From positions 2,976,001 to 3,040,000 of the forward strand of contig NC_060027.1 in NCBI RefSeq assembly GCF_021134715.1: DNA of 64,000 nt. The letters run 5' to 3'. This DNA comes from Daphnia pulex. Lineage: Eukaryota; Arthropoda; Branchiopoda; Diplostraca; Daphniidae. This document shows positions 31,491 to 58,657 of the stretch, in pieces (position 1 is the stretch's first letter; every line of letters begins with the position of its first letter). The notes below the pieces were generated by a model that saw only the letters and a list, made by a program, of their open reading frames with translations, had not been told where the DNA came from and did no database searches. The translations under genes were made by a program, and so were the position numbers.

Positions 31491-34400
31491 AATGGATGTA
31501 ATAGATAAAGGAAATGATCGACATTTGGATGCTAGGGAATATTCGTCTCAGCACCTCCTCCAGCCGGTGCTTTGCGATGCTATTTGAATTTTGAATTTTC
31601 GGTAACTGTTTCAATTTTGTTCGCTAGATGGCAGGCGAGTTTGTCTATAATCGAGTTTCATTTTTCATAAATTGGCAGCACCGCTTTTCTACGGAAATTC
31701 GTCTGCACTGTCCAAACACTCAAACAGAAACAATGTGTCGATGCTCTCTGCTCTGTCAGCAAACAGCATTTAGCTCAGCTCAGTCAGTGGTGGTTGGTTG
31801 CAGAAACGCAGTGTAGGCAGAACAAGCTGCCAACTTAGCATAGTATTGCATAAACGTTTTAGTCATTCAATTATTGTGAGCATTTAGCAAATAATTCCGT
31901 TCCCTTTTGTTTCTCAGACAATCGTATCAAAGTTACGGTGCCCCTTCCCCCACACGTGGCTCAAACAAAGCGTTCAATCAAGTAAGGCTGTTCCAATATT
32001 CCCGGACTACATCAGTGGATGAAATAAAGCATGGATTGTTTCACCTGCTATGAATGCTCAATCTCTCCATGCTGAAAAAAGAGTGAGTGCTACTAGAACA
32101 TTTTATTGTGTCTTTATCGGGCTTAAGTTATCACCACTTAGCTTAAACTCAAATCGCACAACCATAAGTCTAGCTGTTCAAGTACATTGTGATACCATGA
32201 AGCCATCTGTGAATATAAAGTCAACACAAACGCTCAGTGTCAGCAACCACTACGTTCATAAACTGCTAGGTGCTAGCCACAATGTTTTGCCTGTAAAAGC
32301 AAGAATGCGAATTTCCAGTCAACGAGAGAATCACCATGGGTCACAGTTTCATATCAGAGAATCCATACAACACAAGAAAAACAATATTAGACTAGAAGTA
32401 AGACTTTGGCAAATCCTAATTGTGTTGACATTTTTGGTGACAATAATATTTTAATTGTCAGTTTCTTCAACATGCCTGTAGATCTTGGCAATTCAATCTG
32501 ATCATGTGGCCTGAAACTCCTGTACACATTTTCCCAAATGTCGTCTCTTGCTTCACGTACGTTCGTTTCGTCACATGCAGAATTACTTCAGAAAGTAGAA
32601 GTAATTATGTTGGTCAACTCTTTAACCCTAAAGTTACATACACATTTAGTTATTTGATGGCTTTGTTTCTGACAAACAGTAATTGAGTTTTTATTTTTCT
32701 ATTAAGTATTAACAGACTGGGTAAGTCTGAGCTTCTTCATTGCAGTCCAATGTGCAAATGGATTTGTTGCAGCCAGCTGGTGAAAGGTGTTCTTCTTGCA
32801 GGCTTGCTACCTTAAGGTCTTTAGGTTTTTAGGTTGTAGCTTTCATCACATGCAGAAACACTACATAACATTTGAAGTAATTAAATTGATCAACTTTTTG
32901 CTTTGCTTTATGCTGCTGACTTCTCAGTTAAGACTGTTTAAAAGCTTGCCAACTGTTGATGTTTGTAAAAGTAATTCATAGAGAGATTGCTTACTTTGAC
33001 TATGTATCTGTCAATTTGTTATGTCACACATGATTTTTTGTGTTGAAATTGTGTCCACCAGGTGCCGGAGCCGGAGTGTCTGTTCGTGAGTGACGAAATA
33101 CCGCTATTTGCTTTCGAGACAGGACAGAAATGTGTTGCTGACAGTGTTTTTCGAGGTCTGAGCCTTCCTCCCTATTTTTCTCTTTTACATTTAGAAATGA
33201 TAAGGTATTTCCACGCCATTAAACCAACCTGAAGCGAAAGCGAATCATTCTTAAGCAAGTAAGTGAATCGTGGGAGTTGACTTTTCGAAAAGTCCTTTTT
33301 AATCTACCTTAATTAATTTTTTTAAAGTAATATGTCGAAGATCTGGCCTTTCTTCACGTGATCGCTGCTGTGTCATGAAAATGCGTCTTTGAGACTATAT
33401 TGCAAGACTAAAATGTGATGAAAACAGGAAATCTGAAATGGTAATAATTTACTTGTAAGATAAACCAAATAGGTTAGCATTTTGTTCTTGATGTTGAAGA
33501 CAAGTGACTTCTTATTTCGTGATTCAAATTAAAATAGCTTTTGTGGAAACTTTTGTCAGTTTCTAAAGAGTTTTAACTTTTTATATTGAACTGATATTTC
33601 CTTCATTCTTAAAAACTTGAAATGAAATCTTCATTATGTGATGATCTCTGGTCATCTTCTTGATTTTGTTTTCTCTAGTTTAGTGTACAGTACATTTGAA
33701 GTAAATTTTTTTATACAAAAAATCGCAAAACAAATCACAGGAAATATTTGCAACTGATGGGTAACTTTAGATTACCCATGTAATCTCATTGGATAAATGA
33801 GAGGATATTCTCTGTAATATCTCCTATCTCCATACCCCTGCCGTGACTTGTGTGTGCTCCATCAGTTTTTTTCGTATTTTTTAAATTAGTCGGTTGAGTT
33901 GCGTAAATTGGCAAAGCCGCTTTAATTTCCACGAAAGTTCGTCTGCTCACCAATGCTCCCCAAATGCAAAAGTCAAAACGGTCAAAACGTCAGAATTCTA
34001 AGATTTCAACCCCAATTTTCACGAATTGAATTTTCTTATCATAAACTTCCGACGTGCTGGCTGTTTTACTCGGTAGAATTTGGTGTCTGTCTGAGACGAA
34101 GAAAATTTTGAGACTATGTGGCGTCTTCTATGTACGCTAGAACTAGAAGGTGATCGTACTCGATCCTTTTTGTTGTCAGGTTTGTTTTATGAATCATATA
34201 TTTAAATTTAAATGTGTTTATTAATTTCCTTAAAACCAAGCTGTAACTGTCAGCGATTGAAGACCAAAGAGTAGATTCCTTTGTTTAATTTTGGTGTAAT
34301 TTTACGTAAAATCTTAAGATGTGGTTTGATGTGATTGAATTTTCATCGTTTACCCCATTTTTCGTATTTGGGTAAGCTTGTTCACCCTTAGACTCTGTAA

Positions 34401-34727
34401 AATCTTTTACTTCTTAACAAATTTAAGTAACTGCTTAATTCTACTTTAAAATACTTCGTTCATATGGTTCGTAGGCCTAGTGAACAGAAAGTTACCGACG
34501 ACGAAAGTCCAGCAATCATGCATTCTTCCGACTCGTAATAATGAGTAAATGTTTCGTTTTTTTTTAACGTGGAGTTTCGTTTCAATTCAACTATTTTTTC
34601 TCTATGTGCACTCGTACGTTACTTAAAATGTTCTAAATTAAATTTTGGTATATTTTCAACATGTTCCAACTGATGCAGTGTTCATTAATTATTTTTAAAA
34701 TACCATTGTAGATTTCAACCTGCAGAC
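31491..34727. other. gene-poor interval between NRF genes and the palindrome
   Basis: No recognised protein. Sequence near 31670-31720 (GGCAGCACCGCTTTT, then TTCGTCTGC) recurs in diverged form at 33910-33960, and a segment near 32550-32620 recurs near 32840-32910, so the region is partly internally duplicated. Exon-like pieces are visible (acceptor at about 31917 with a GTAAGG donor at about 31982; acceptor at about 33060), which would fit a spliced non-coding or decayed transcript. Confidence 0.35.
32050..32454 (+). CDS. open frame of 134 codons, unrecognised
   Basis: An ATG-initiated frame with a hydrophobic C-terminal end (LWQILIVLTFLVTIIF) that would suit a tail anchor. No domain or family is recognised. 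The codon pattern and surroundings do not look strongly coding, and a GTGAGT donor-like sequence lies early in the frame. Possibly chance. Confidence 0.15.
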   Translation: MNAQSLHAEKRVSATRTFYCVFIGLKLSPLSLNSNRTTISLAVQVHCDTMKPSVNIKSTQTLSVSNHYVHKLLGASHNVLPVKARMRISSQRENHHGSQFHIRESIQHKKNNIRLEVRLWQILIVLTFLVTIIF

Positions 34728-35083
34728 GTTTGCATATCCTTCACGCTTGAAGGTCGAGGGAAACATTGTGTAAAATTGTCAATGCGGCGGTGTAGAGATT
34801 GGGTGAGAACTGGACGTGTTTCATCATTTTCAGCAGGTACAATAGCCGCAAGGCTCAGCCATTTGGTATTGATTTTGGTTTTTGTAGACCCAACCCCAGC
34901 AACGTCAACCTAAAGAAGGAAAGGCCAGTTTGCATTTCCTTCACTTTCGAAGGTCACGGAGATCATTACGTAAAACTGTCAATGCGGTGGTGTAGAGGTT
35001 GGGTGAGGACGACACGTGTAACATATCAAGCAGGTACAAAAGCCGCAAGGTATAAGATGTGGGTCAGGGTGAGAAAAATGTCG

Positions 35084-35091
35084 TATAAAAG
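35084..35091 (+). promoter_or_regulatory. TATA box of decayed Tyr-rich gene 1 (left arm)
   Basis: TATAAAAG lies about 32 bp before an ATCAGTCG initiator (35113-35120), a textbook arthropod core promoter. Similar upstream modules, each with a TTCAC..GAAGGTC block and a GTGTAGAGATTGGGTGAG-like block, are repeated at about 34728, 34930 and 35510. Confidence 0.6.
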
Positions 35092-35112
35092 GAGAGAGAA
35101 AAGTCGACAAGG

Positions 35113-35465
35113 ATCAGTCGAACGAGTATCTCCGACACGGTAACAACTTCAGCGCACTATTGGTCACCAGCTGCATTCTTCATCGTATCATCATCAGTTC
35201 GCAATCCCAAGTAAATATTCTGTTACTTGTTATTTAGTATCAATTTCTATTGTTTTTTAGTCAGTAGAATATTAATGTTCCAATAATTTATTGTTTAGCA
35301 AACTGTGGCGTCGTGCTGCTGTTGGTTGTTGTCCTGAAATACTACTCCACCGAGGCTTCAAAGTATTACACTACAATTTATGCTGCCGCGAGATGCATCA
35401 CTAAAGAGCTCGAGTTCTACATCGTGATCCCATTCGTATTAAGCCATAACCATTTGGTATTAATT
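35113..35465 (+). pseudogene. decayed Tyr-rich (YYTT) repeat gene 1, left arm
   Basis: A 5' exon (35113 to about 35210, GTAAAT donor) has no ATG where the related copies suggest the start should be. The second exon begins after TTTAG at about 35301 with a signal-peptide core (GVVLLLVVVL) joined directly to a few Tyr-rich repeats (KYYSTEASKYYTT), then runs out of frame similarity. The copy looks truncated and non-functional. The intact family appears to be secreted Tyr-rich repeat proteins; the role is unknown. Confidence 0.55.
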
Positions 35466-35689
35466 TGATATTGTTTGTTGTACACCCACCCCCAGCAACG
35501 TCCAATTAGCATGTCCTTCACCCTTGAAGGTCGCGGAGATCATTATGCAAATCTGTCAATGCGGTGGTGTAAGGTTGGGTGAGAACAGAAAGTGTTTGCT
35601 ATATTATCGAGGAGGTATAATAGTCGTAAGGCTTAAGAGAGGGGTCAGGGTGAGAAAAAGTCGTATTAGTGGCAAGAGAAAAGTCAATA

Positions 35690-36485
35690 GGGATCAGTCG
35701 AGTGAGTATCTCCATCACGGCAACAACTGCAGCCCACTATTTGTCACCAACTGCCTTCTTCATTGTACAACCAGTTCGCAATCACGGGTAAAAATTCATC
35801 TTTATTTCGAGTCGTGAATCAATTTTGTCTTGTTTTCAGTTTATATTAGTAGTTATGAGTTTATATTCGATAATGTTCAAATCGTTTATATTGTTTAGTT
35901 CACTCTGGCGCCGTGCTGCTGTTTGGTGTCTTATCGTTGAAGGTTGGGTCGACCACGGGTTTACTGATGTCTTCTGGTCATGGTGGAGACCAAGCAACAG
36001 CAGCGAAAGAATACTACACCACGCCGCCGCCTTACTACGCAACGAAGTCAACATACGCAACATCTACTTACAACACCGAGGCCCCCAAGTGCTACACCAC
36101 CAAGGCTCAAGAGTTACGCTACAAATAACGCTGCCCCGAGTTACATCACCAAAGCGCCTGAGTACTACATCCCCGAGGCACTACAACTGAGGCGGCGAAG
36201 TACTACGTAGCCTATGCTTACAACACAGCAGCTGCTCCTTCATACTACGTTGAACTGAAATACTACACCAAGGCTGCAGTTAACTACACCACAACCTACG
36301 CTACACCTAGCTACTATGACGAAGCCCCCAACTACTACACCGAAGAGGCCACATGTTACACATCAACGTACAGTGCCCCAGTTTACTACACCGAGGAACC
36401 CAAGTATTACTCTGCTCCAAGCTACTACCAAACTGAGGCTCCTGTTTACCAAGGCCACCGAGTATTATACTACAACCAAACGGTA
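35690..36485 (+). pseudogene. decayed Tyr-rich (YYTT) repeat gene 2, left arm
   Basis: A 5' exon ending in CACGG before GTAAAA (start codon apparently changed to ACG) is followed by a main exon from 35899. That exon has a signal-peptide core (GAVLLFGVLSL) and repeats such as KEYYTTPPPYYATKSTY and TEAPKCYTTKA. A one-base insertion near 36114 and further frame changes near 36177 and 36450 break the repeat frame, which otherwise continues to a GTAAAT donor at about 36481. The upstream promoter copy has a degraded TATA box. Confidence 0.6.
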
Positions 36486-36586
36486 AATATTGTTTCTACA
36501 TGTTTTGTTTCACTTTATTATTTTTTTCTCTTTGTTAATATGATATTTCATATTGAAAATTGATGTTCATATTTTGTACCGTCTAG

Positions 36587-37324
36587 TTAACTATGGCGTC
36601 GTGCTGCTGTTGGTTGTATTATCCTTGATGGCTGGGTTGACCACTGGTGTACCAATGTCTCCTGGGTATGGCGGATACCAAACCGCAACGCCGGTGTCTT
36701 ACTATACAACAACATACGCAGCAACCGGATACTACACCCCCAAGGCCCTAGAGTATTAATTACACCATAACTTATGAAGTCCCGAACTTCTACACCGAAG
36801 CTTCGAAGTTTAACTCAGCCCCGGGTTAAACCACCAAGGCAGCGGAGTACTACACCACCAAGGCAGCGGAGTACTACACCACCAAGGCAGCGGAGTACTA
36901 CACCACCAAGGCAGCGGAGTACTACACCACCAAGGCAGCGGAGTACTACACCACCAAGGCAGCGGAGTACTACACCACCAAGGCAGCGGAGTACTACACC
37001 ACCAAGGCAGCGGAGTACTACACCACCAAGGCAGCGGAGTACTACACCACCAAGGCAGCTGCATATACGTACTACGTTGAACCGGAATGCTAAACCGAGG
37101 CTCCAGTTTTCTATACTACAGCCTGCGCTTCTCCTAGGTACTATACTACCAAGGCAACTGAGTATTACACCACTTCTTACGCTGCTACCACCTACTACAC
37201 CGAAGCTCCGAAGTTGTACTCTGTGCTGAGTTACCACACCATTAAGGAAGTCGAACATTACACCACAAACGCTTCCGCAACTTACTACATGGTGATTCCG
37301 AAATTTCTATTTGATTTTATTTAG
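36587..37324 (+). pseudogene. decayed Tyr-rich (YYTT) repeat gene 3, left arm
   Basis: Starts after an AG acceptor with a well-preserved signal sequence (GVVLLLVVLSLMAGLTTG) and continues GYGGYQTATPVSYYTTTYAATGYY. The repeat frame then meets stops near 36757, 36827 and 37091 and a shift near 36760, although Tyr-rich repeats continue to about 37324. It contains the 24-bp minisatellite encoding KAAEYYTT. Gene identity rests on the repeat pattern; cuticular or egg-case use is a guess. Confidence 0.6.
36836..37051 (+). repeat. 24-bp minisatellite, 9 units (left arm)
   Basis: Nine identical-looking 24-bp units, each encoding KAAEYYTT. The right arm has 22 units of the same repeat. Confidence 0.95.
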
Positions 37325-37836
37325 ATATGTCGGTTTTCTTCATGGTCATTGGTCATTGGGAATTAATTGTTGATCTCGATTGAGAAAATAAAATTTCTAA
37401 TGCCGGTAATTCGTTTGTATGACTTGGTAGTAACTTCAAGCCTGTCAACGTTGCGGCAGGTGTCTATTGGTGTTGGACTTCTTCAAGGCCAGTATCCTAC
37501 GTTGTGATTTGTCTGTTATGTTTTGGAAGTGATTACTGCCTTAATCGCTCTGCATACGGATTTGTTTTAGTGGTTCGACGTGAAGTTTCAAGGGAAAGTT
37601 ACGAAAGAAACTTGTAAATGTTGATTTTTGCAAATCTTATATGTAAGTAAAAGGCAATCGGCTGATCTTTGTATAATGAAAGACTTAGAAGTTGAGGAAA
37701 TTCCTCGACTAAACTTGGTATAAATTAAGAGACAATGAACAAAAAAATAAAAAGAATTGTGTTATATTGTCCCACCTCCACCCACAATTCCACCACATTT
37801 TACAGTCACATACATACATACATACACTTAAGTTAA
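37325..37836. other. palindrome left arm, between gene 3 and the MITE
   Basis: Nothing recognised. A short (CATA)n run at 37811-37827 precedes the MITE. Confidence 0.6.
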
Positions 37837-38096
37837 CCCGTTGGCTGCCACGCCATACAACCCGTAGGTTGCACTCTACTACTCTACGCGCCACGTCTGA
37901 AGGATCCATGACCAAGTGGGACTTACCATTGCTGACAAGTCCGTGCTGACAAGGGGGGACTAAGTGCATTGCCTGAAACAGGCTTGCCTTGCGGCAAATT
38001 TTGGGCTTGGCGACTCCCCGACCCCGCGGCTTTTAAACCACGAGACCGAACAGCGCGGCCCGTGCAGTGGAGAACAAAGGTGTGGCAGCCAACGGG
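37837..38096. mobile_element. piggyBac-like MITE, 260 bp (left arm)
   Basis: Terminal inverted repeats CCCGTTGGCTGCCAC...GTGGCAGCCAACGGG are flanked on both sides by TTAA (37833-37836 and 38097-38100), the target-site duplication and CCC-start typical of piggyBac-superfamily elements. There is no transposase frame. Both ends look whole. Confidence 0.85.
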
Positions 38097-38446
38097 TTAA
38101 CTAACACTAACACAATAATACCAACAATACGATGATCCACGTTGATGACGAGTCTCGGTGTCGGTCGCGATTTCACCGAGTTTCGTTCGCACCAGGAGCA
38201 GGGGCAACGTCCGACGGAGACCGGTGACGATTGTTAAAGATGGGAAAATCCATCTTCTCGACGTCTCCTCTGCATTACCTGAATCAAGACAAACAATTCT
38301 TATTAAGTGACATGCCAATAACAGTTACATAATAGTCACATAATACATATGGGATCATTGATCTGTTTTTTTTTGCTCAAAACTTCAAAGGCGCGCTTTA
38401 AATTGCTTAAAATCTACCTAACAATATTGAGAACTGTACACATAAC

Positions 38447-38831
38447 AAAGCTCACTTGCTAGTCTAAAAAAAAAATTCCGGAAGTATACCGGAAGTAACC
38501 ACAGCGCCTCAACCATTGAGCTGTCGTCATATTAAACCACATATTCGTGATCTCCATGAAATTTGGGGTCGAATAGGTGTGATTTAAACGAAATCCAAAA
38601 TTTGGGCAAAATCGAGAATTTTCCTGAACTATAGTTCAGGAAAATTTTCGAAACCGGAAGTACGAAAACGTAAAAAATATAACATGAACTTTACTACAAA
38701 TTTTACGAGGATCACGAATATGTGGTTCTTTTGCTCCTCAAATGAATATTTACTGAACTACAGACTGAAATGAGCAAACCGGAAGTAGAAAAAAAAGCAA
38801 AATATCGAAAATTTAACAAGTGAGCTTTGTT
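38447..38831. mobile_element. fold-back element, 385 bp (left arm)
   Basis: Ends AACAAAGCTCACTTG and CAAGTGAGCTTTGTT are perfect inverted repeats. The interior is also an imperfect inverted repeat: CATATTCGTGATC against GATCACGAATATG and repeated CCGGAAGTA motifs, with the exact palindrome TCCTGAACTATAGTTCAGGA (38626-38645) near the middle. Non-coding, probably a MITE. A related end lies at 46974-46990 outside the palindrome. Confidence 0.65.
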
Positions 38832-39971
38832 GCTGGCATAGTAATCGTCAGTTATCACTAAATATTTCAAAAAAATAACTGCCGATAAATGTTAAAAGAC
38901 ATGTGCAAAGTTTCTGAAACTGACTGTTTTGACAGCTGCAAATTTTCAAAAAGCCATCTAGCGTTGGAAAAAAGAAACTTCAATGTTAAACTTCGTTGGC
39001 GCGTAAGAAAGGCCTGATTTTGGAAACTACTACACAGACAGAGTCTAACTCAACTAGACTATTGGTAGATAATCTACGAAAATAAGTCAAATGTTGGGTA
39101 CCTGGGCATAATCCGGTGGTGAATGATGACAGGTGTGTCACAGCGGGCGGAAGCGAACACTGAAGTGATTTAATTCGCCAATGAAGCACAAGAAGCAGCG
39201 TACGTGGTGAAGATAAGGAACCGAACGTTGGTAGAAGTCCTTCTTCTGTCATGGACAAAAACCAGCGTTGGCTCAGGACTCACGATTCCATGAAGAAACT
39301 GCGTTGTAGATTGAAACTGGCGGCCGACTCGCGATCTCAGAGGACGTCATAAATAGTTCTGTAAAAATGAGTTGGGAATTAAAAGGAAGCTTGAACAAAA
39401 TTAACTCATAGTAGCATGGTAAAAGGTGATAATGATGTTTACCTTTATCATTTGGGTGACGAATTCAGTAAGGCATTTGACTTTCATCAAGCAGATCTGG
39501 AAATGTACTAAATGAACTCACACTCTTCATGTACATTCACTGAAACTGGAACTGTAATTAGCAATTGGATAAGGAAAATTATTTATATTATTTACAAATT
39601 TACATATGAAAAACAAAACTCTACCTATCTCTCATCTGGGTTGCCTTCTGAGCGGCTGTAGAAACAGTTGTACACTCGACAAACATTCTGACACAGGTTA
39701 CACTTGCAAGATTCAGAAAAGATCCACGGTCCATGCACAAGAACTTTTGTCTAATTCCACTGTATGTAAGCTTCAAATATGAGTTTCAGGCTTTTGACAC
39801 TCATAAGGATCTAATAGGATGGAAAGTGACTGAGCACTAAGTCAACTTAATTGTTGGAATGACGGACTGACTTTCTAGAATTAGAAGAAATGGATATAAT
39901 AGATAAAAAAAATAAGGAAACTAGGTCAAGATAAACCTACACCATAAACCTACAAACGAAGTTCAATTGAG
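38832..39971. other. inner part of palindrome left arm
   Basis: No gene recognised. Contains a CGCTAGATGGC motif (reverse complement at 38953-38963). Short open frames have no domain. Confidence 0.5.
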
Positions 39972-40138
39972 TAATTCGGAATCACAAAAGGGTTCTATGA
40001 ACGGTGGAGTTCTTCTGTCAGCAACCCTTATTTACTGACCGCTAGATGCCACTGTCTTCAATTGATTTTGTCATACAGCCTGCATCATGAAACATGGCGT
40101 TGTTGCTAACTTGCTATTTACTTATTTTTCTGTGAATT
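39972..40138. other. palindrome spacer (axis)
   Basis: About 167 bp of unique sequence between the arms. Includes CGCTAGATGCCACTG (around 40040). No gene. Confidence 0.8.
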
Positions 40139-41260
40139 CTCAATTGAACTTCGTTTGTGTAAGTTTATTTTGACCTAGTTTCTTTATTTTGAAATATTAC
40201 ATCAATCTCTTTAAATTCTAGAAAGTCAGTCCGTCATTCCAACAAGTTGACTTAGTGCTAAAGTTGCTTTCCATCCATTAGATCCTTATGAGTGTCAAAA
40301 GCCTGAAACTCATATTTGAAGCTTACATACAGTGGAATTAGACAAAAGTTCTTGTGCATGGACCGTGGATCTTTTCTGAATCTTGCAAGTGTAACCTGTG
40401 TCAGAATGTTTGTCGAGTGTACAACTGTTTCTACAGCCGCTCAGAAGGCAACCCAGATGAGAGATAGGTAGAGTTTTGTTTTTCATATGTAAATTTGTAA
40501 ATAATATAAATAATTTTCCTTATCCAATTGCTAATTACAGTTCCAGTTTCAGTGAATGTACATGAAGAGTGTGAGTTCATTTAGTACATTTCCAGATCTG
40601 CTTGATGAAAGTCAAATGCCTTACTGAATTCGTCACCCAAATGATAAAGGTAAACATCATTATCACCTTTTACCATGCTACTATGAGTTAATTTTGTTCA
40701 AGCTTCCTTTTAATTCCCAACTCATTTTTACAGAACTATTTATGACGTCCTCTGAGATCGCGAGTCGGCCGCCAGTTTCAATCTACAACGCAGTTTCTTC
40801 ATGGAATCGTGAGTCCTGAGCCAACGCTGGTTTTTGTCCATGACAGAAGAAGGACTTCTACCAACGTTCGGTTCCTTATCTTCACCACGTACGCTGCTTC
40901 TTGTGCTTCATTGGCGAATTAAATCACTTCAGTGTTCGCTTCCGCCCGCTGTGACACACCTGTCATCATTCACCACCGGATTATGCCCAGGTACCCAACA
41001 TTTGACTTATTTTCGTAGATTATCTACCAATAGTCTAGTTGAGTTAGACTCTGTCTGTGTAGTAGTTTCCAAAATCAGGCCTTTCTTACGCGCCAACGAA
41101 GTTTAACATTGAAGTTTCTTTTTTCCAACGCTAGATGGCTTTTTGAAAATTTGCAGCTGTCAAAACAGTCAGTTTCAGAAACTTTGCACATGTCTTTTAA
41201 CATTTATCGGCAGTTATTTTTTTGAAATATTTAGTGATAACTGACGATTACTATGCCAGC

Positions 41261-41645
41261 AACAAAGCTCACTTGTTAAATTTTCGATATTTTGCTTTTT
41301 TTTCTACTTCCGGTTTGCTCATTTCAGTCTGTAGTTCAGTAAATATTCATTTGAGGAGCAAAAGAACCACATATTCGTGATCCTCGTAAAATTTGTAGTA
41401 AAGTTCATGTTATATTTTTTACGTTTTCGTACTTCCGGTTTCGAAAATTTTCCTGAACTATAGTTCAGGAAAATTCTCGATTTTGCCCAAATTTTGGATT
41501 TCGTTTAAATCACACCTATTCGACCCCAAATTTCATGGAGATCACGAATATGTGGTTTAATATGACGACAGCTCAATGGTTGAGGCGCTGTGGTTACTTC
41601 CGGTATACTTCCGGAATTTTTTTTTTAGACTAGCAAGTGAGCTTT
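41261..41645. mobile_element. fold-back element, 385 bp (right arm copy)
   Basis: Mirror image of the element at 38447-38831, with the same AACAAAGCTCACTTG ends. Confidence 0.65.
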
Positions 41646-41995
41646 GTTATGTGTACAGTTCTCAATATTGTTAGGTAGATTTTAAGCAATTTAAAGCGCG
41701 CCTTTGAAGTTTTGAGCAAAAAAAAACAGATCAATGATCCCATATGTATTATGTGACTATTATGTAACTGTTATTGGCATGTCACTTAATAAGAATTGTT
41801 TGTCTTGATTCAGGTAATGCAGAGGAGACGTCGAGAAGATGGATTTTCCCATCTTTAACAATCGTCACCGGTCTCCGTCGGACGTTGCCCCTGCTCCTGG
41901 TGCGAACGAAACTCGGTGAAATCGCGACCGACACCGAGACTCGTCATCAACGTGGATCATCGTATTGTTGGTATTATTGTGTTAGTGTTAGTTAA

Positions 41996-42255
41996 CCCGT
42001 TGGCTGCCACACCTTTGTTCTCCACTGCACGGGCCGCGCTGTTCGGTCTCGTGGTTTAAAAGCCGCGGGGTCGGGGAGTCGCCAAGCCCAAAATTTGCCG
42101 CAAGGCAAGCCTGTTTCAGGCAATGCACTTAGTCCCCCCTTGTCAGCACGGACTTGTCAGCAATGGTAAGTCCCACTTGGTCATGGATCCTTCAGACGTG
42201 GCGCGTAGAGTAGTAGAGTGCAACCTACGGGTTGTATGGCGTGGCAGCCAACGGG
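41996..42255. mobile_element. piggyBac-like MITE, 260 bp (right arm copy)
   Basis: Mirror image of 37837-38096, with the same CCCGTTGGCTGCCAC ends and flanking TTAA. It was duplicated with the arm rather than inserted twice. Confidence 0.85.
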
Positions 42256-42767
42256 TTAACTTAAGTGTATGTATGTATGTATGTGACTGTAAAATGTGGT
42301 GGAATTGTGGGTGGAGGTGGGACAATATAACACAATTCTTTTTATTTTTTTGTTCATTGTCTCTTAATTTATACCAAGTTTAGTCGAGGAATTTCCTCAA
42401 CTTCTAAGTCTTTCATTATACAAAGATCAGCCGATTGCCTTTTACTTACATATAAGATTTGCAAAAATCAACATTTACAAGTTTCTTTCGTAACTTTCCC
42501 TTGAAACTTCACGTCGAACCACTAAAACAAATCCGTATGCAGAGCGATTAAGGCAGTAATCACTTCCAAAACATAACAGACAAATCACAACGTAGGATAC
42601 TGGCCTTGAAGAAGTCCAACACCAATAGACACCTGCCGCAACGTTGACAGGCTTGAAGTTACTACCAAGTCATACAAACGAATTACCGGCATTAGAAATT
42701 TTATTTTCTCAATCGAGATCAACAATTAATTCCCAATGACCAATGACCATGAAGAAAACCGACATAT

Positions 42768-43817
42768 CTAAATAAAATCAAATAGAAATTTCGGAATCAC
42801 CATGTAGTAAGTTGCGGAAGCGTTTGTGGTGTAATGTTCGACTTCCTTAATGGTGTGGTAACTCAGCACAGAGTACAACTTCGGAGCTTCGGTGTAGTAG
42901 GTGGTAGCAGCGTAAGAAGTGGTGTAATACTCAGTTGCCTTGGTAGTATAGTACCTAGGAGAAGCGCAGGCTGTAGTATAGAAAACTGGAGCCTCGGTTT
43001 AGCATTCCGGTTCAACGTAGTACGTATATGCAGCTGCCTTGGTGGTGTAGTACTCCGCTGCCTTGGTGGTGTAGTACTCCGCTGCCTTGGTGGTGTAGTA
43101 CTCCGCTGCCTTGGTGGTGTAGTACTCCGCTGCCTTGGTGGTGTAGTACTCCGCTGCCTTGGTGGTGTAGTACTCCGCTGCCTTGGTGGTGTAGTACTCC
43201 GCTGACTTGGTGGTGTAGTACTCCGCTGACTTGGTGGTGTAGTACTCCGCTGCCTTGGTGGTGTAGTACTCCGCTGCCTTGGTGGTGTAGTACTCCGCTG
43301 CCTTGGTGGTGTAGTACTCCGCTGCCTTGGTGGTGTAGTACTCCGCTGCCTTGGTGGTGTAGTACTCCGCTGCCTTGGTGGTGTAGTACTCCGCTGCCTT
43401 GGTGGTGTAGTACTCCGCTGCCTTGGTGGTGTAGTACTCCGCTGCCTTGGTGGTGTAGTACTCCGCTGCCTTGGTGGTGTAGTACTCCGCTGCCTTGGTG
43501 GTGTAGTACTCCGCTGCCTTGGTGGTGTAGTACTCCGCTGCCTTGGTGGTGTAGTACTCCGCTGCCTTGGTGGTTTAACCCGGGGCTGAGTTAAACTTCG
43601 AAGCTTCGGTGTAGAAGTTCGGGACTTCATAAGTTATGGTGTAATTAATACTCTAGGGCCTTGGGGGTGTAGTATCCGGTTGCTGCGTATGTTGTTGTAT
43701 AGTAAGACACCGGCGTTGCGGTTTGGTATCCGCCATACCCAGGAGACATTGGTACACCAGTGGTCAACCCAGCCATCAAGGATAATACAACCAACAGCAG
43801 CACGACGCCATAGTTAA
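42768..43817 (-). pseudogene. decayed Tyr-rich (YYTT) repeat gene 3, right arm
   Basis: Mirror copy of 36587-37324 with the same stops and shift, lengthened by the larger minisatellite. The signal sequence GVVLLLVVLSLMAG is preserved near 43790. Confidence 0.6.
43041..43568 (-). repeat. 24-bp minisatellite, 22 units (right arm)
   Basis: Twenty-two 24-bp units encoding KAAEYYTT on the minus strand. Two adjacent units (around 43201-43250) share a C-to-A change on the plus strand that converts KAAE to KSAE. The mirror array in the left arm has only nine units and lacks the variants. Confidence 0.95.
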
Positions 43818-43918
43818 CTAGACGGTACAAAATATGAACATCAATTTTCAATATGAAATATCATATTAACAAAGAGAAAAAAATAATAAAGTGAAACAAA
43901 ACATGTAGAAACAATATT

Positions 43919-44714
43919 TACCGTTTGGTTGTAGTATAATACTCGGTGGCCTTGGTAAACAGGAGCCTCAGTTTGGTAGTAGCTTGGAGCAGAGTAATAC
44001 TTGGGTTCCTCGGTGTAGTAAACTGGGGCACTGTACGTTGATGTGTAACATGTGGCCTCTTCGGTGTAGTAGTTGGGGGCTTCGTCATAGTAGCTAGGTG
44101 TAGCGTAGGTTGTGGTGTAGTTAACTGCAGCCTTGGTGTAGTATTTCAGTTCAACGTAGTATGAAGGAGCAGCTGCTGTGTTGTAAGCATAGGCTACGTA
44201 GTACTTCGCCGCCTCAGTTGTAGTGCCTCGGGGATGTAGTACTCAGGCGCTTTGGTGATGTAACTCGGGGCAGCGTTATTTGTAGCGTAACTCTTGAGCC
44301 TTGGTGGTGTAGCACTTGGGGGCCTCGGTGTTGTAAGTAGATGTTGCGTATGTTGACTTCGTTGCGTAGTAAGGCGGCGGCGTGGTGTAGTATTCTTTCG
44401 CTGCTGTTGCTTGGTCTCCACCATGACCAGAAGACATCAGTAAACCCGTGGTCGACCCAACCTTCAACGATAAGACACCAAACAGCAGCACGGCGCCAGA
44501 GTGAACTAAACAATATAAACGATTTGAACATTATCGAATATAAACTCATAACTACTAATATAAACTGAAAACAAGACAAAATTGATTCACGACTCGAAAT
44601 AAAGATGAATTTTTACCCGTGATTGCGAACTGGTTGTACAATGAAGAAGGCAGTTGGTGACAAATAGTGGGCTGCAGTTGTTGCCGTGATGGAGATACTC
44701 ACTCGACTGATCCC
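43919..44714 (-). pseudogene. decayed Tyr-rich (YYTT) repeat gene 2, right arm
   Basis: Mirror copy of 35690-36485 with the same lost start codon and frame breaks. Confidence 0.6.
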
Positions 44715-44938
44715 TATTGACTTTTCTCTTGCCACTAATACGACTTTTTCTCACCCTGACCCCTCTCTTAAGCCTTACGACTATTATACCTCCTCGATAA
44801 TATAGCAAACACTTTCTGTTCTCACCCAACCTTACACCACCGCATTGACAGATTTGCATAATGATCTCCGCGACCTTCAAGGGTGAAGGACATGCTAATT
44901 GGACGTTGCTGGGGGTGGGTGTACAACAAACAATATCA

Positions 44939-45291
44939 AATTAATACCAAATGGTTATGGCTTAATACGAATGGGATCACGATGTAGAACTCGAGCTCTT
45001 TAGTGATGCATCTCGCGGCAGCATAAATTGTAGTGTAATACTTTGAAGCCTCGGTGGAGTAGTATTTCAGGACAACAACCAACAGCAGCACGACGCCACA
45101 GTTTGCTAAACAATAAATTATTGGAACATTAATATTCTACTGACTAAAAAACAATAGAAATTGATACTAAATAACAAGTAACAGAATATTTACTTGGGAT
45201 TGCGAACTGATGATGATACGATGAAGAATGCAGCTGGTGACCAATAGTGCGCTGAAGTTGTTACCGTGTCGGAGATACTCGTTCGACTGAT
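44939..45291 (-). pseudogene. decayed Tyr-rich (YYTT) repeat gene 1, right arm
   Basis: Mirror copy of 35113-35465, truncated in the same way. Confidence 0.55.
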
Positions 45292-45312
45292 CCTTGTCGA
45301 CTTTTCTCTCTC

Positions 45313-45320
45313 CTTTTATA
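45313..45320 (-). promoter_or_regulatory. TATA box of decayed Tyr-rich gene 1 (right arm)
   Basis: Mirror of 35084-35091, with the same spacing to an ATCAGTCG initiator. Confidence 0.6.
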
Positions 45321-45676
45321 CGACATTTTTCTCACCCTGACCCACATCTTATACCTTGCGGCTTTTGTACCTGCTTGATATGTTACACGTGTCGTCCTCA
45401 CCCAACCTCTACACCACCGCATTGACAGTTTTACGTAATGATCTCCGTGACCTTCGAAAGTGAAGGAAATGCAAACTGGCCTTTCCTTCTTTAGGTTGAC
45501 GTTGCTGGGGTTGGGTCTACAAAAACCAAAATCAATACCAAATGGCTGAGCCTTGCGGCTATTGTACCTGCTGAAAATGATGCAACACGTCCAGTTCTCA
45601 CCCAATCTCTACACCGCCGCATTGACAATTTTACACAATGTTTCCCTCGACCTTCAAGCGTGAAGGATATGCAAAC

Positions 45677-47572
45677 TGGCCGGCCCGTCAAGATAGGAGT
45701 TACCTAAAATATTAATAAATTATTGCATTTTTATGAAAAAAACAAATGTGGTTACTTGTAAGTACCTTTACATTTGTTATGTGTGGTTGTCATCTAGGTG
45801 TTTGTCAAAATGGGAAACAACCGCCTCAATACTTCTTGCCTCAGATAAAATTGCTCACAAGTTTCAATGATGGGTTAATTTAATTCTGCCATGGCCAAAG
45901 TTGAAAGGAACTGTTCAAGCTGATGGTGCTGGCATGAGTAGTTCCACGTTTTATGGTCTTCGACGCCAATTTCTTCCTGGTTGCCATTTTCTTCGATGAA
46001 GATGTTTCTTGCAAGGAAGTATTTGCGCCCATGTCGGTCATTATCCAAATATTCCAGAAACTAATTAAATAGGAGAAATGAGAAACTTCGTTGAAACAAC
46101 CAGAAAATGCTATGCAAAATCATCTTGAATTAAATGAAAAATTAAAATGGAATGGCCGTGCATAAGTAGTTACTTGCTGCAGACGAATTATTGAAAATCC
46201 AGTGTTACTTTTATGAAGCTGGATGCCGACTTACGCTCCACAATCATTTTTGAAGTAACTTAACCAGGGGAATGGAGAAATAATTACAATTAATATTAAT
46301 TAAAATCAATTAATATCATCTCATTGGAGAGATGATAATAAGTAATTAAACAAATTCAATTTTTTCTATCAGAAACTTTATCAGAGAATTTTAATGTGGA
46401 AACGAAGTCCTAAATTATTAAGTTACTCAACATTATTACTTATACTGTTCTCAATTACTTTCACACTGCTTTCAGATGTGACGAAACGTGCAACATGCAG
46501 CAAGATACGACATTTTGAGGAAATCAGGAAATGTACTGCAAACCACATTCCACATGGAATTGACATGTATAAATTGAAGGTCATGTTACCAGTAAATTAA
46601 CCATGAAAAACATTTAAATTAAGAATAAAAGCACGAATTACCTTTTCTTATGAAGATCAATTGACAATTTCAAGAAAGAAAGTAAAGAAAATACCCCGTA
46701 ATGAGTAATGACTAACGTAACCATCGATAACCATCCTCGGATAGATAGAAAGACAATCGTCTCAGGTCTCAGCACTTTGATGACCACGCCCCCTCTAGAA
46801 CACGAACACACTAGAGCTGAATAGTTCAATCCCTAAACACACTGAAATAATTTGCCACCTAGTGAGAGCAATAAGCATCCACGAACGACTAGAGTCGGAC
46901 GGAAAATAAACCAAACATTCGTCATCTCCGGGAAATAGATTTAGTAGAAAAAAAAAAGAATTATCGAAAAATTAACAAGTGAGCTTTGTTAGTGGAATAG
47001 TTATTATCAGCCATCACCAAAAAGTTACCACACAATAACTGCCAATGACAAAGGCCCAGCAGTCCAGCACTGACCCAATGTCAATGATCTCCGTGCCAGG
47101 ACCACACAATTCCAATAAAGAAACTGTGGATTGCGAAGTTCGCGTAGGAAATAAGTATTAAATCAAATATACTTGACTTCATGTGCATGGATATAGAAAA
47201 CAAAACGGAAAATTAGGTTTCTATAATTCAATCAATTGTTATGTATCATTTTAAAAAGAACAATTGATTAATTGAACCTGTGACGAACTAAATGATTCGG
47301 TGATAGCAGAGTTTGATGACTCTGGTGATAGTGATTGTGATTTGTGATCAACATCCAACATATTTGAAAATTCAAGGTAAAAAAAAAAAAAAACATTAAT
47401 CATGAACTGGCAACTTTTTCCCTTTACGACTTTACGGAACATTTTTTATGCGGACTGTTGACGTCCGCAAAACACCTGACGCTGTTTTGAAATTTCTGAA
47501 ACTCGTCACTCACACTGGAGTTGAATGACTTCCTAAGTAAACTGTTTAGTGATTAGATATTCCTCTTCTTAA
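45677..47572. other. intergenic between palindrome and BPNT2
   Basis: Holds the BPTF-like fragment listed separately and, at about 46962-47050, a partial copy of repeat sequence found at 38810-38900 (end AACAAGTGAGCTTTGTT plus diverged flank). A 68-codon open frame at 46394-46600 has a hydrophobic stretch but no recognised family. The last few hundred bases are probably the BPNT2 promoter. Confidence 0.5.
45875..46060 (-). pseudogene. fragment resembling BPTF/NURF301, one exon
   Basis: After an ATTAG acceptor the minus strand reads about 61 codons (YLDNDRHGRKYFLARNIFIE, then KTWNYSCQHHQLEQFLSTLA) and a stop. This resembles the conserved segment of the nucleosome-remodelling subunit BPTF/NURF301 whose family pattern is D.R.RKYWFL.RRIF.E...WYYST..QLEQL. 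The usual W of KYW is missing and WYYST is WNYSC. I see no neighbouring exons of that gene, so it is most likely a duplicated, decaying piece. Identity comes from memory of the family. Confidence 0.45.
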
Positions 47573-48822
47573 ATGAATTTCGGAGGTACTATTCGACCCA
47601 ATAATAAAGCTGTCGCCATCTTCTTGGTAAGTGTGGCGACGCTTTATTTGATTTATACTTGGAGAAATAGTGCAGCATTGGCAAAAGAATCGGCTTTTGG
47701 GAGTGAAAAAGTTAGCATTGGGGAGATATTATGTGCTGCAATTGCAGCAGCTGAGGCAGGTGGCAGAGAGGTGAAAGCTGTTCGAGAGAAAGGAACCGAG
47801 CTCAATGAGAAGAGTAAAGGCAAAACAAAAGAAGGTGTCAAGGATGTCTTGACCGATGGAGATATGAGATCACATCAAGTCATGTACAGTACACTAACCT
47901 CTTATTTCCCTCACATAAAAGTAAGGATTTATTATTCTCTATGAAAGTGGAAATTTATTATGTTTACTTTCTATAAAGGTAATTTCTGAAGAACATGATG
48001 AGAATAACATCTCCATGGAACCAGTCAACTTCAACAAGAAATGCCCTGCTCTCGAGCAAATATCAAAATTAGAATGGGCACCAAATGATTCCATTACAAT
48101 TTGGATTGATCCACTGGATGCAACCAAAGAATACACAGGTATACAGACATCAATGCATTTTTTTGAAAGGGTAATATTCAAAACACTTGTAGAAAACTTG
48201 CTGGAGTATGTGACCACCATGGTATGTATTGCAGTAAAAGGTGAACCAGTTGTTGGAGTTATCCACAAGCCTTTTGAAAAGAAGACTTACTGGGCTTGGG
48301 TTGGTCAGGGAATGGCCGAAGAATTGCTCGAAATCAATAAAGCGGTAATCATCACTTCAGTTTAAATTTAAATTTGCTTTGATTTAATTTGTTAACATCC
48401 AGCCCGAGGCCGACAACGAATCCTTTATAATTTCGCTGTCACACACCGGAGACGCTGTTGAAAACCGTATCAAATCAAAGTTTCCTAACGCCAAAGTGGA
48501 GAAAGCTGGGGGTGCAGGTATTTAATCAATTCTAAACAGCTACGTCGATCAAGCGAATGTATACAAACATTTTTCTCCAGGTTACAAGTCGTTGCAGATT
48601 GCCAGTCGACACAATGCAGCGTATGTACACATGACACACATTAAAAAGTGGGATGTATGTGCGGGGCACGCAATTCTAAAAGCCTTGGGAGGTCGTGTCA
48701 CCACCATGAAAAATGAACCCATCAAATATGGTAGTGGTGCAAATGATGAAGTCCTTATTAAGGATGGTCTGCTTGCCAGTTTACACAATGGTGATTTTTA
48801 TTCAAAATTATTTAAAGAATAA
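47573..48822 (+). CDS. BPNT2: Golgi-resident 3'(2'),5'-bisphosphate / PAP phosphatase (inositol monophosphatase domain protein)
   Basis: Single-pass type II membrane phosphatase (also called IMPAD1, gPAPP or IMPA3) that hydrolyses 3'-phosphoadenosine 5'-phosphate in the Golgi lumen, relieving sulfotransferase inhibition. Exons: 47573-47920, 47979-48138, 48193-48344, 48403-48517 and 48581-48822, giving 338 residues. An N-terminal anchor (AVAIFLVSVATLYLIYTW) is followed by KSKGKTKEGVKDVLTDGDMRS, the metal-binding EEH (about 120-122), the signature WIDPLDATKEYT (158-169; ligands D160 and D163), GVIHKPF and WDVCAGHAILKALGG near the C-terminus. The second intron is only 54 nt and stop-free, so read-through would insert 18 residues. 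It converges on the AIMP3-like gene with a 67-bp gap. AATAAA overlaps the stop (48818-48823). Confidence 0.93.
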
Positions 48823-48889
48823 ATAATCAGTATAGGTTGCAAATATTCTGTGACTTTGTTTCTTTATTTGACCAATCAAACATTGATAC

Positions 48890-49390
48890 TCAATACAATG
48901 AGCTTCTGCTGAATGGGGAAGTAATTGAGAGTTGATTATTGCTGATATGTGAAACATGAGTAAACCATCTTGATAAATAAGGATATTTCTCCTTTGTTTG
49001 TATGCTTTGGGGACCCTGTAAACATGAACATTCATTTAAAATATTATATCTGTTTAAGGATTTAAAAATAAAAGACTTACATAGAATTCTGATAGTCCCA
49101 ATAAGACCTCAACATCTGCCTTTGAGAATTTGTTTCCAGCCAAGTAGCTTACATTCTTCAGGTGGCCATTAAGCTCCTATTTGTAAAGGCACGTCGTGAA
49201 AAGTTCAAACAATCATTACATTTAATTCTATTACCTGGAACACGGAAACAGGTAGGCCTGATGATTGGTGCGAGTTCACATGGTATCGATCCAACACAAC
49301 TTTTCTGTACTCAAGCCATTGACGAATTAGCGCTTCTTCTTCCAGGGTGTATTCTTCACTAGATTCTGATTTCTTCACGTTCGGTTTCAT
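48890..49390 (-). CDS. AIMP3 / eEF1-epsilon-1-like protein (GST-C domain only)
   Basis: Resembles the scaffold protein AIMP3 (EEF1E1, p18) of the multi-aminoacyl-tRNA synthetase complex. Exons 49390-49235, 49176-49081 and 49015-48890 give 125 residues. Recognised segments: ALIRQWLEYR, LNGHLKNVSYLAGNKFSKAD (the GST-C YL.G..F..AD motif) and EKYPYLSRWFTHVSH, matching the family's NVSRWF.H. The family is usually about 170-180 residues; the N-terminal thioredoxin-like part is missing here. Either an upstream exon has not been found or the Daphnia gene is shortened. The ATG at 49390 follows an in-frame stop, supporting a real short start. AATAAA lies at 48863-48868 on this strand. Confidence 0.75.
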
Positions 49391-50168
49391 GTTAAAAGTT
49401 ATTTGGTGCTGTTAGACTTGTTTGACGTAGTAGTTGCTGGCTTTCTGCACGTTTTCGGCAGACGACAACTAAAAATCTAGGCAATAACAACTTAACAGCG
49501 TCAGACAGCAGCTCCTCTAGCGCCTTAATCCTGAAGCTGAATTCAATTATGCTTTGCTGTTTGCTCGTCTTATTAGTCGGCAAAAACGTCCTAAGTCGGT
49601 GTTTCCTTTTTTTCCCAACTCTGTGACAGCGTATTAGGACGCAATTAAGGAGAACTGAACCATACCTAATTAAAAGGGCCCCACTTTTTCTGGTATATTA
49701 CTCCATACTCCTAGTTTGTCCGAATAAAACCAAATCAAATATTTCCGAAAAGCGCAAACAGAAACACCCCGATGCGTAAAATGGGGTCCCGTAAAATGAA
49801 CTGAGAGAAAGATTTAGATAACGACGGACACGCTGTGACGCTGATCGTGAAACTAAATTCCTGAAGTAGAAAATAAATTACAAAAATTTTAAAGCGATCA
49901 CTACATAATCTCATCAGCTACACGGTATAGCCCAGACAATCGAATTTTTTTTACAGAAAAGACTTTAGTACCTGCTGGCATAAAAATTATTTGTGAGATA
50001 TGTTGGTATACGCTTCCTAAAGTAAATCAATTGTGAGTAAGAAGTCAAAGATATCCTTAGCATTATTTAACGTATATGCCTGTGTAAACTGTAAACCATT
50101 TCTAATTGTGGCTTGGGGATTCGAAAGTGAATTTTTATTGAGTCGTCCAGATTGCATGACGTTACAAG
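49391..50168. other. intergenic between the AIMP3-like gene and PSMB5
   Basis: The part next to 49391 should hold the AIMP3-like promoter or a missing upstream exon: minus-strand frame 49583-49392 is open but not recognised. No other gene, RNA or element is seen. Confidence 0.5.
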
Positions 50169-51371
50169 TTATTTTGAAGTTCTCTCAGCTTCTTCGTACT
50201 GATAATGAAGCTCCGTACAATCTTGTTCGGATATCTTGACCCATCCGGTGCTCTTAATGTGATAGACTAGAAAAAAACATGAATTGCTCAATGATAGTCT
50301 ATTTAAATTGTACATGAAAAATTTACCTCGAATGATGCCACCACTGCTTGCATCACGATAAGTTGCGTGATAGATGGCCCTACGACCCAATTCATAAGCT
50401 TCTTCATCTGTTAGGTCAGGTTTGTAGCCAGAATCAAGCACACCATATGCATATAGAGATCCAGATCCAACAGAAAAGACCTGCCCTGGGGTCCTTGTTC
50501 CATCATTATCAACGTAATACAAACCAGGGCCCTTATAATTAATAAATAAAAGAACAGGATCACTGGATCAGTAAGAAAACGTAATTCGGTAACCAAATAG
50601 AATTTTGTAACTGCACCTTTTTATCCCATCCTGCAATCATAACTCCCATGCTTAGTCCCATGCCTTTGTAGTTGTACACCATGTTAACGAGCAGTTTCGA
50701 TGCAGCGGCAACAGAAATGCGTTCTTTGTTACGAAGTTCATAAAGTCTGCACTGTTTTGAAAGAACACGTTCCCAATAAGTACAATCAGCAGCACCTAGT
50801 TTAGAATAAGATGAATATTACGCTATCACTTATAACATACCTACTCAATCATTATTATATGAAATTATTCATACCACCAGCCATTGTTCCAAGCAAAAAG
50901 TCATTGATTTCAATGATTTTTTTTACTGATCCAGATCCTAGGTACAAAAAAGAATTGTGATATTATTTTGATATTATACAACTAATATTGATCCCATTTA
51001 CCAATGTACTGCCCCCCAGTTGCTCGAGAATCTACAGCAAGAACAATTCCTCCTTGATATTTAAACCCTAGTGTTGTGGTACCATGGTCATAGTTTATCT
51101 TCATTTCTCTGCCATGCTCATCAACAGGGTTCTTGCTGTAGGTGTTACTAGGCTAAAAGAAACAATGATCATATATGATAGTGAAATGAAACAGCACTCC
51201 AAATTGTTGAGAAAATTCAATGAAAAAACTTACACAACTCAATGGTGGCAAAGCTAGTTGACAAGGATTCCCAATAGTTTTAAACGACGACAATACATCT
51301 TCTAGCTCGTCGTGTTCAGTGGTTTTGAAGTTTGAACGAGAATTAATTCCGCAAATGTCAAAGAGAGCCAT
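50169..51371 (-). CDS. PSMB5: 20S proteasome subunit beta type-5 (chymotrypsin-like site)
   Basis: Catalytic beta5 subunit of the proteasome core. Exons: 51371-51234, 51152-51002, 50937-50875, 50795-50617, 50531-50327 and 50266-50169, giving 277 residues. A propeptide of 70 residues ends in HG; autocleavage exposes the nucleophile Thr71 (TTTLGFKY). In mature numbering the catalytic partners and pocket residues are present: D17, R19 and A20 (AVDSRAT), K33 (VKK), M45 and A49 (GTMAGGAADC). It continues [20 protein letters not shown] and [15 protein letters not shown]. Arthropod-like residues G5 and G27 replace the human alanines. Divergent with DDX1, sharing a 331-bp upstream region. Confidence 0.97.
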
Positions 51372-51702
51372 GACGATGCATAAAGAAATTTCAAAGTTTG
51401 TGATATACTGTTGTCGACTGCTATGTTTTACAGTGTTGTCAATCTCACCTTTTTGGTTTTCGATCTGATTCTGTCGTCTGTCGTCTGCTGATCGTCGTCT
51501 TGATCTATGATTTCGATTTCACCGGCATTCCCTAGGTGTGTGCTGTATCAAAACATTATATTAAAGACCCGTAAGACTCGTTTAACAAATCAGAACGGAT
51601 TAGACTTCCGTGTCATCAGTGAATTCGAATAGCTTGCATTTTTTTTCGACAAAACCGAAAAGAAATTTCACGGTTGATTTGTAACTTGCTTACAGCTACA
51701 GG
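51372..51702. promoter_or_regulatory. bidirectional promoter region of PSMB5 and DDX1
   Basis: 331 bp between two divergent start codons. No TATA box is evident on either strand. It must contain both 5' UTRs and start sites. Confidence 0.6.
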
Positions 51703-54700: not shown

Positions 54701-54900
54701 AAGAAAACGTTTTCGTCTGCCGTTTGTTAAAATACTTTAAACAGTTCTTATTCAATTTTATTTCAACAGCTTCGGCTTATCAGAGTCACGTAGCTCAAAT
54801 GGCGGGAGCTGTTCAAGAGCTGGCTGTCCAAGAAATGAAGGCTCAGTTACTTTTCCATTCATTCTCTAATAATGCTAAGAAAATTTTTGGATCTGTTTAA
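51703..54900 (+). CDS. DDX1: ATP-dependent RNA helicase DDX1
   Basis: DEAD-box helicase with an inserted SPRY domain. In animals DDX1 acts in the tRNA-ligase complex, RNA transport and DNA-break repair. Sixteen exons: 51703-51718, 51791-51934, 51994-52095, 52159-52361, 52430-52672, 52738-52914, 52985-53122, 53186-53425, 53484-53670, 53739-53879, 53953-54105, 54169-54214, 54281-54452, 54519-54567, 54627-54698 and 54770-54900. They encode 737 residues (human 740). Motif I ETGSGKT is at about 47-53, the SPRY domain at about 95-245, PSRELAEQ (Ia), TPGRLDEL (Ib), DEAD at about 371-374, SAT (III), ARGLDIRG (V) and [13 protein letters not shown] (VI) at about 596-608. The C-terminus has CxxHGKGC and IWYDEQQ. 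The first coding exon has only 16 nt. All introns are about 50-75 nt. Confidence 0.97.
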
Positions 54901-58608: not shown

Positions 58609-58657
58609 TTAATTCTTAAAAAGATGCGGTTTAAAAAGTCGACCAAGACAAAATGTT

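What the first reader, a model, noticed from the sequence alone, without database searches (positions are those of the whole stretch)
34728..45676. An 11-kb palindrome with near-identical 5.2- and 5.5-kb arms and a spacer of about 170 bp
The arms match base for base over long stretches (coordinate sums are constant at 80092 and 80404), both outer ends are sharp, and divergence is concentrated in the innermost 100 bp. Such low arm divergence implies either a very recent inverted duplication, arm-to-arm gene conversion, or an assembly fold-back. The 9-versus-22 difference in the 24-bp array argues against a trivial mirrored-contig artefact, because a pure copy would have equal arrays.
Basis: partly seen in the sequence, partly recalled or inferred. 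Interest (0 to 1): 0.8.

Follow-up and report, generated by a model that had tools for sequence, protein, structure and literature searches.

The report
Self-copying palindromes scattered through a genome
This 11-kb mirror-image stretch of DNA in what looks like a water-flea genome is an old structure whose two halves keep being copied over each other, and it belongs to a family of such palindromes on several chromosomes, which makes it a good natural experiment on how duplicated DNA stays identical.

Summary
The palindrome is real: window 34728-39815 pairs with 40277-45676. It shows 1 substitution in 4,858 bp outside a 24-bp array and the tip. A diverged tip of about 145-160 bp per arm surrounds a spacer of about 156-170 bp.

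It is not young. Its centre recurs in six palindromes on another contig, two of them only in part, and 10 of 12 further centres fetched are homologous to it. Beyond the tip, six aligned palindromes show 0 sites grouping by side and 433 grouping by palindrome (15 pairwise comparisons, pooled). In the tip the split is 30 to 34, and an indel still marks the sides in 5 of 6. One relative, P3, shares both outer junctions, but its centre is flipped relative to its flanks.

Best explanation: arm-to-arm gene conversion that rarely reaches the tip, with an occasional crossover inversion. An unrelated palindrome family shows the same signature in the two copies fetched. Array copy number differs between arms in 8 of 10 palindromes.

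The kind is known; a dispersed family of converting palindromes is what my searches did not find. No reads were available.

The parts
34002..34727 (+). left flank, homologous (about 88%) to the RIGHT flank of palindrome P3 (C7:11595723), opposite strand
34728..36829 (+). left arm, outer part: repeated units of a Tyr-rich repeat gene family (TATA-box-like and signal-peptide-like stretches seen by eye), frames broken
36830..37059 (+). 24-bp array, 9.6 copies, read as TTKAAEYY
37060..39815 (+). left arm, inner part (identical to the right arm)
39816..39977 (+). tip A: diverged innermost arm, long form of the tip indel
40134..40276 (-). tip B: diverged innermost arm, short form of the tip indel
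40277..43032 (-). right arm, inner part
43033..43574 (-). 24-bp array, 22.6 copies
43575..45676 (-). right arm, outer part
45710..46251 (+). right flank, homologous (76%) to the LEFT flank of P3, opposite strand

Best explanation
An old palindrome carries convergent copies (broken in the window) of a tyrosine-rich repeat gene. It has been duplicated to other sites and chromosomes, flanks included in at least one case (P1 and P3). In each copy the two arms pair, on one molecule or between sisters, and one is copied over the other by gene conversion. Conversion keeps the arms nearly identical while copies at different sites drift apart. It rarely reaches the last hundred or few hundred bases at the dyad, so the tips keep an older asymmetry. 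Occasionally the exchange resolves as a crossover that inverts the centre relative to the flanks. The 24-bp array changes copy number faster than conversion evens it out. Shown: structure, shared tips, palindrome-by-palindrome homogenisation, shared junctions with a flipped centre in P3. Inferred: pairing mode, why the tip is spared, how copies disperse.
For:: beyond 190 bp from the tip, 0 side-specific versus 433 palindrome-specific sites, pooled over 15 pairwise comparisons of P1-P6 (not independent). In the tip, 30 versus 34. The long form of a tip indel is on side A in 5 of 6 and the short form on side B in 6 of 6; P5 carries the short form on both sides. P1 mismatches fall only in the two innermost 100-bp bins. 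P1 and P3 (another contig) share both outer junctions, with flanks on the opposite strand but centre and spacer on the same strand (93% in the spacer), i.e. an inversion. (best single alignments): P1 arms 99.9% over 2,866 bp, P3 arms 99.9% over 5,365 bp, P1 against P3 94.5% over 4,605 bp. The sister arm has a higher identity than the two best-scoring other sequences shown, for both arms, in 12 of 14 palindromes; pooled arm-to-arm identity of 16 palindromes is 84.4% at 0-50 bp from the tip and 99.6% at 600-800 bp; two palindromes of an unrelated family, about 85% alike, have mismatches almost only in the innermost 100-200 bp; beyond that one has no difference and the other 1 mismatch and a 1-bp gap, over about 3.2 kb per arm.
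Against: P4 and P7: in the region 260-1450 bp from the tip, P4_A groups with P7_B, P7_A with P3, and P4_B apart; 5 of 7 palindromes group arm with arm. So some exchange runs between palindromes, or evening is incomplete there. P7 was left out because its tip is not comparable. C4_4344 arms are no closer to each other (92.1%) than to other loci, and one arm of C10_3950 is as close to another locus. Tip length varies; in P6, C4_3579, C7_1748, C7_2000 and C11_3301 low identity extends into the 300-600 bp bins, some of it perhaps misalignment. Two of 12 further centres showed no homology to the window's centre. P1 and P3 share only 2 side-specific sites in the tip, so that pair rests on the indel and the junctions. 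One assembly, no reads.
Confidence: 0.88

Rival explanations
1. A very recent inverted duplication: a short, already diverged inverted repeat (the present tip) folded back and primed copying of one arm, giving identical long arms around an old tip.
For: It predicts identical arms with a diverged tip, as seen. Single-arm relatives exist.
Against: P1 and P3 share both outer junctions, so the palindrome predates their split, which is about 5% in the arms. Five of six centres P1-P6 keep the same tip asymmetry around arms of their own. The five single-arm loci examined match the spacer and one arm on the plus strand, not the other tip.
Confidence: 0.05
2. An assembly artefact: a fold-back, or one arm's consensus written into both arms.
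For: Near-zero arm differences; no reads were available.
Against: The flanks are not palindromic. Array length differs. The tip is diverged. A homologous palindrome with the same junctions lies on another contig. The same assembly keeps more diverged arms apart elsewhere, e.g. P4 at 94.4% and C9_1185 at 96.6%.
Confidence: 0.05
3. A mobile element with giant terminal inverted repeats (foldback-like), whose arms are evened out and dispersed by transposition.
For: 24 two-strand clusters, all in convergent order. An unrelated family shows the same form. Foldback elements with long, tandem-repeat-rich inverted ends are recalled from Drosophila.
Against: No common size: the 24 clusters span 4-13 kb. 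P1 and P3 share flanking sequence outside the arms on both sides. Old tip asymmetry with identical arms needs conversion anyway. One intact gene piece has no Pfam match, but the arms were not scanned for a transposase.
Confidence: 0.1

Closest known systems
Primate sex-chromosome palindromes (human Y P6, PMC3723533: passages seen; X palindromes, PMC8981503: listing and abstract start)
   Same: Near-identical arms kept alike by arm-to-arm gene conversion. In P6, rare inversions by crossover and conversion tracts of kilobases.
   Different: Those are much larger loci on sex chromosomes. Here there are many homologous copies, small arms (about 5-6 kb), very short spacers and a diverged tip.
C. 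elegans inverted gene pairs kept by active maintenance (PMC1803023: part 1 of 4 seen)
   Same: Inverted paralogous genes, divergent or convergent, with arms more alike within a genome than between orthologues; short spacer (126 bp in one example).
   Different: Shown there by orthologues between species. Here the comparison is between copies inside one genome, with shared tips, shared junctions and a centre inversion.
Palindromes in parthenogenetic animals (Adineta vaga, Folsomia candida; PMC7953838: passages seen)
   Same: Palindromes in invertebrate genomes, proposed to allow gene conversion.
   Different: Those were found by gene collinearity. D. pulex was not screened there for lack of an annotation. 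The passages seen hold no tip comparison.

Membership tests
Gene-converting palindrome | Two inverted arms around a short spacer, flanks not part of the repeat | tested here: met
Gene-converting palindrome | Arms more alike within a palindrome than between homologous palindromes | tested here: met
   (12 of 14); exceptions C4_4344, one arm of C10_3950, and P4/P7 near the tip
Gene-converting palindrome | Palindrome older than its arm divergence suggests | tested here: met
   shared tip asymmetry and outer junctions
Gene-converting palindrome | Conversion events seen directly among individuals | not testable with these tools
   one assembly only
Gene-converting palindrome | GC bias of conversion | not tested
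   no polarised changes computed
Foldback/long-TIR transposon | Encoded transposase | not tested
   only one intact Tyr-rich gene piece, one off-frame array translation and one ORF of the second family were scanned; the arms were not searched for a transposase
Foldback/long-TIR transposon | Fixed element ends with target-site duplications | tested here: inconclusive
   only P1 and P3 ends compared: junctions shared and flanks homologous; no empty site available

The most novel reading that the evidence does not exclude
In this genome palindromes multiply as units. Families of palindromes (the tyrosine-rich family here, and an unrelated one whose repeat also lies in the left flank) are copied to new sites complete with both arms, and each copy then homogenises itself. 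Arm-to-arm conversion would be a general force here, outside the sex-chromosome setting where it is best known, and palindromic architecture itself would favour duplication.
Probability: 0.35. Interest if true: 0.75.

Novelty: new variant of a known kind. Interest (0 to 1): 0.58.

Why it matters
Converting palindromes are usually studied one locus at a time, so rates, tip effects and inversions must be inferred from few examples. Here one ancestral palindrome exists in many copies of different divergence in one small genome, with a marked centre. That makes the distance dependence of conversion near the dyad, the ratio of conversion to crossover, and the effect of array instability measurable by replication. 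If the organism is Daphnia pulex (recalled, not shown), sexual and asexual lineages could be compared.

Tried and rejected
A constant conversion-free zone set by loop length: tip length and loop length do not track each other clearly by eye over 16 palindromes, so this stays a suggestion. Single-arm loci as the pre-palindrome state: the five examined share part of the spacer and one arm, and three (C6_2061, C9_7670, C4_2514) share roughly a further 100-190 bp beyond the junction, but small inverted pieces there leave ancestral versus broken undecided. Known protein domain for the tyrosine-rich gene: none for the open 333-residue piece; one sub-threshold match (17.4 bits, cut-off 50) for an off-frame translation of the array. 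Literature: searches for Daphnia with palindrome and gene conversion, with tyrosine-rich repeat families, with inverted duplicates, with large inverted repeats, and general searches listed no title or abstract start on converting palindromes in Daphnia; of the listed papers I opened only PMC7953838, PMC1803023 and PMC3723533, and only open-licence PMC papers are held. A first joining of loci with a wrong strand rule gave conflicts and was redone without conflicts.

Full report
OBSERVATION. The inverted repeat is present as described. Outside the 24-bp array and the tip the arms differ at 1 of 4,858 positions, 34821/45583. The array has 9.6 copies on the left and 22.6 on the right. Inward of 39815/40277 the arms go on for about 145-160 bp at lower identity: 11 and 12 mismatches in the first two 100-bp bins from the tip and none in the later bins (Fisher p = 8e-33 for 23 of 188 against 1 of 4,858). 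The rest of the window (1-33900 and 46300-64000) holds one match to the left arm and its flank at E 1e-8, 104 bp at 46943-47046.

CONTEXT. The window is C11:2976001-3040000 of a 133,188,837-bp, 13-contig genome. C13 carries a cox1 with 9 TGA codons inside the frame, open under the invertebrate mitochondrial code, whose best PDB matches are cytochrome c oxidase subunit 1 chains such as 1occ (recalled as bovine). Size, contig number and the cox1 protein fit Daphnia of the pulex group; this is recalled, not tested. A paper on D. obtusa reports 129.4 Mb on 12 chromosomes (PMC12926508, abstract start in the listing). The arms hold units of a tyrosine-rich repeat protein family (TTKAAEYY and similar). 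Several copies have a hydrophobic, signal-peptide-like stretch (by eye), and one copy on C7 has an open frame of 333 codons, stop to stop. In P1 the frames are broken: a stop lies just before the array, as in P3 and C4_3579, whereas C10 copies read through that place. The open piece has no Pfam match.

A FAMILY OF PALINDROMES. A search with the centre (39750-40340) finds it at six palindromes on C7 (P2-P7; in P6 and P7 the match is interrupted or partial), and finds apparent single-arm relatives on C1, C4, C6, C8 and C9, of which I examined five. The outer gene region and inner arm hit many more places. I clustered 159 hits taken (weaker rows not typed in) at 12 kb: 75 clusters, 51 on one strand and 24 on both. 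In 24 of 24 all plus hits come before all minus hits, the convergent order of the window's palindrome. Not every two-strand cluster was fetched and shown to be a palindrome. Five further plus-minus pairs of one-strand clusters 12-20 kb apart were not counted. Only the best 40 candidates of each search are scored, so these are lower bounds. Of 12 further palindrome centres fetched, 10 are homologous to the window's centre, mostly at about 70-80%, and two (L071, L080) are not.

CONVERSION RATHER THAN RECENCY. Six palindromes P1-P6 can be aligned by side, A and B (P7's tip is not comparable and was left out). Beyond 190 bp from the tip, 0 informative sites group A with A and B with B across palindromes, while 433 group the two arms of one palindrome, pooled over 15 pairwise comparisons that are not independent. 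Within the tip the counts are 30 and 34. A tip indel is in its long form on side A in 5 of 6 and in its short form on side B in 6 of 6; P5 has the short form on both sides, as if converted to the very end. So the asymmetry of the tip is older than the copies, and the arms have been evened out in each copy since. In trees of the region 260-1450 bp (260-760 bp with P6), arms group by palindrome in 5 of 7, not in P4 and P7. Across 14 palindromes with arm sequence in hand, the sister arm beats the two best-scoring other sequences shown, for both arms, in 12; C4_4344 fails and C10_3950 is ambiguous in one arm. Alignments differ in length and gaps count as differences.

THE P1-P3 PAIR. P3 (C7:11595723) shares both outer junctions with P1. 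P1's left flank matches P3's right flank and P1's right flank matches P3's left flank, both on the opposite strand, whereas centre and spacer match on the same strand (93% in the spacer). Hence the palindrome existed before the two copies separated, and its centre has since been inverted relative to the flanks in one of them, as a crossover between arms would do. Between P1 and P3 the arms are 94.5% alike over 4,605 bp; within each they are 99.9% alike. A recent, independent fold-back at each site would have to hit the same two outer breakpoints.

TIP EFFECT AND ARRAYS. Over 16 palindromes (P1-P7 and 9 of the 12 fetched centres; L070, L071 and L080 were left out) the pooled arm-to-arm identity is 84.4% in the first 50 bp from the tip, 90.9% at 50-100, 93.4% at 100-200, 95.4% at 200-300, 93.4% at 300-400, 95.6% at 400-600 and 99.6% at 600-800, the outer bins resting on fewer palindromes. 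The tip length varies, from some tens of bp in P2 to about 400-600 bp in C4_3579, and five profiles are irregular. My reading, an inference, is that two arms cannot pair easily close to the dyad because the DNA would have to bend too sharply. Arrays of 24-bp units were found in both arms of 10 of the 14 palindromes; their copy number differs in 8 of 10, equal in P3 and P7 (one array, in C9_1421, is cut by a locus end). In C4_3579 the arms have 0 mismatches and 2 gaps in 5,932 aligned bp and yet 15.6 and 13.6 copies. The arrays therefore change faster than conversion evens them out, and the window's 9.6 against 22.6 is ordinary for the family.

A SECOND FAMILY. The left flank of P1 includes a piece of another repeat family which also occurs as equal-scoring plus-minus pairs. 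The two that I fetched, at C6:4585 kb and C6:465 kb, are palindromic over 6.8-6.9 kb, practically the whole stretch fetched (so their ends are not known), and are about 85% alike; the one compared with the window (L082) matches only its left flank, not the arms. Mismatches lie in the innermost 100 to 200 bp (31; 43 and 6). Further out one has none and the other has 1 mismatch and a 1-bp gap. The signature is thus not tied to the tyrosine-rich gene.

WHAT COUNTS AGAINST. P4 and P7 do not group by palindrome near the tip, so there is exchange between palindromes or incomplete evening. One assembly cannot show events, and an assembler that writes one consensus into both arms cannot be excluded without reads, although it kept 94-97% arms apart elsewhere.

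KNOWN OR NEW. Arm-to-arm conversion in palindromes is established in primate sex chromosomes (PMC3723533, passages) and was argued for inverted gene pairs of C. elegans (PMC1803023, first of four parts seen). A survey of parthenogenetic animals could not screen D. pulex for lack of annotation (PMC7953838, passages). The searches listed no title or abstract start about such palindromes in Daphnia or a dispersed family of converting palindromes; most listed papers were not opened. I therefore call it a new variant of a known kind.

Noticed in passing
window 32485-33711; C6:4581801-4588600 (L082), C6:461851-468800 (L083): A different dispersed repeat next to the palindrome is itself found as palindromes elsewhere, with homogenised arms and a diverged tip; some copies lie within about 70 kb of the ends of contigs C7, C9 and C12.
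   Followed up: partly
window 46333-47046: Dispersed repeat with many copies on C11 and C3, mostly on one strand among those listed; one equal-scoring divergent pair at C12:9811-9833 kb.
   Followed up: no
C1:4040932, C4:2514011, C6:2060988, C9:7669934, C4:3706720: Single-arm relatives with part of the spacer and one arm only; either the state before the palindrome or broken palindromes.
   Followed up: partly
window 2786-7698: Open frames with BTB_2 and Ion_trans matches: a voltage-gated potassium channel-like gene.
   Followed up: no
window 59440-60723 (-): A 428-codon open frame over a 15/30/45-bp tandem array, no Pfam match.
   Followed up: no
C10:3950 kb and C10:4306 kb: Arms of C10_3950 are 98.7-99.5% alike to a locus about 360 kb away, a recent duplication or exchange.
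   Followed up: no
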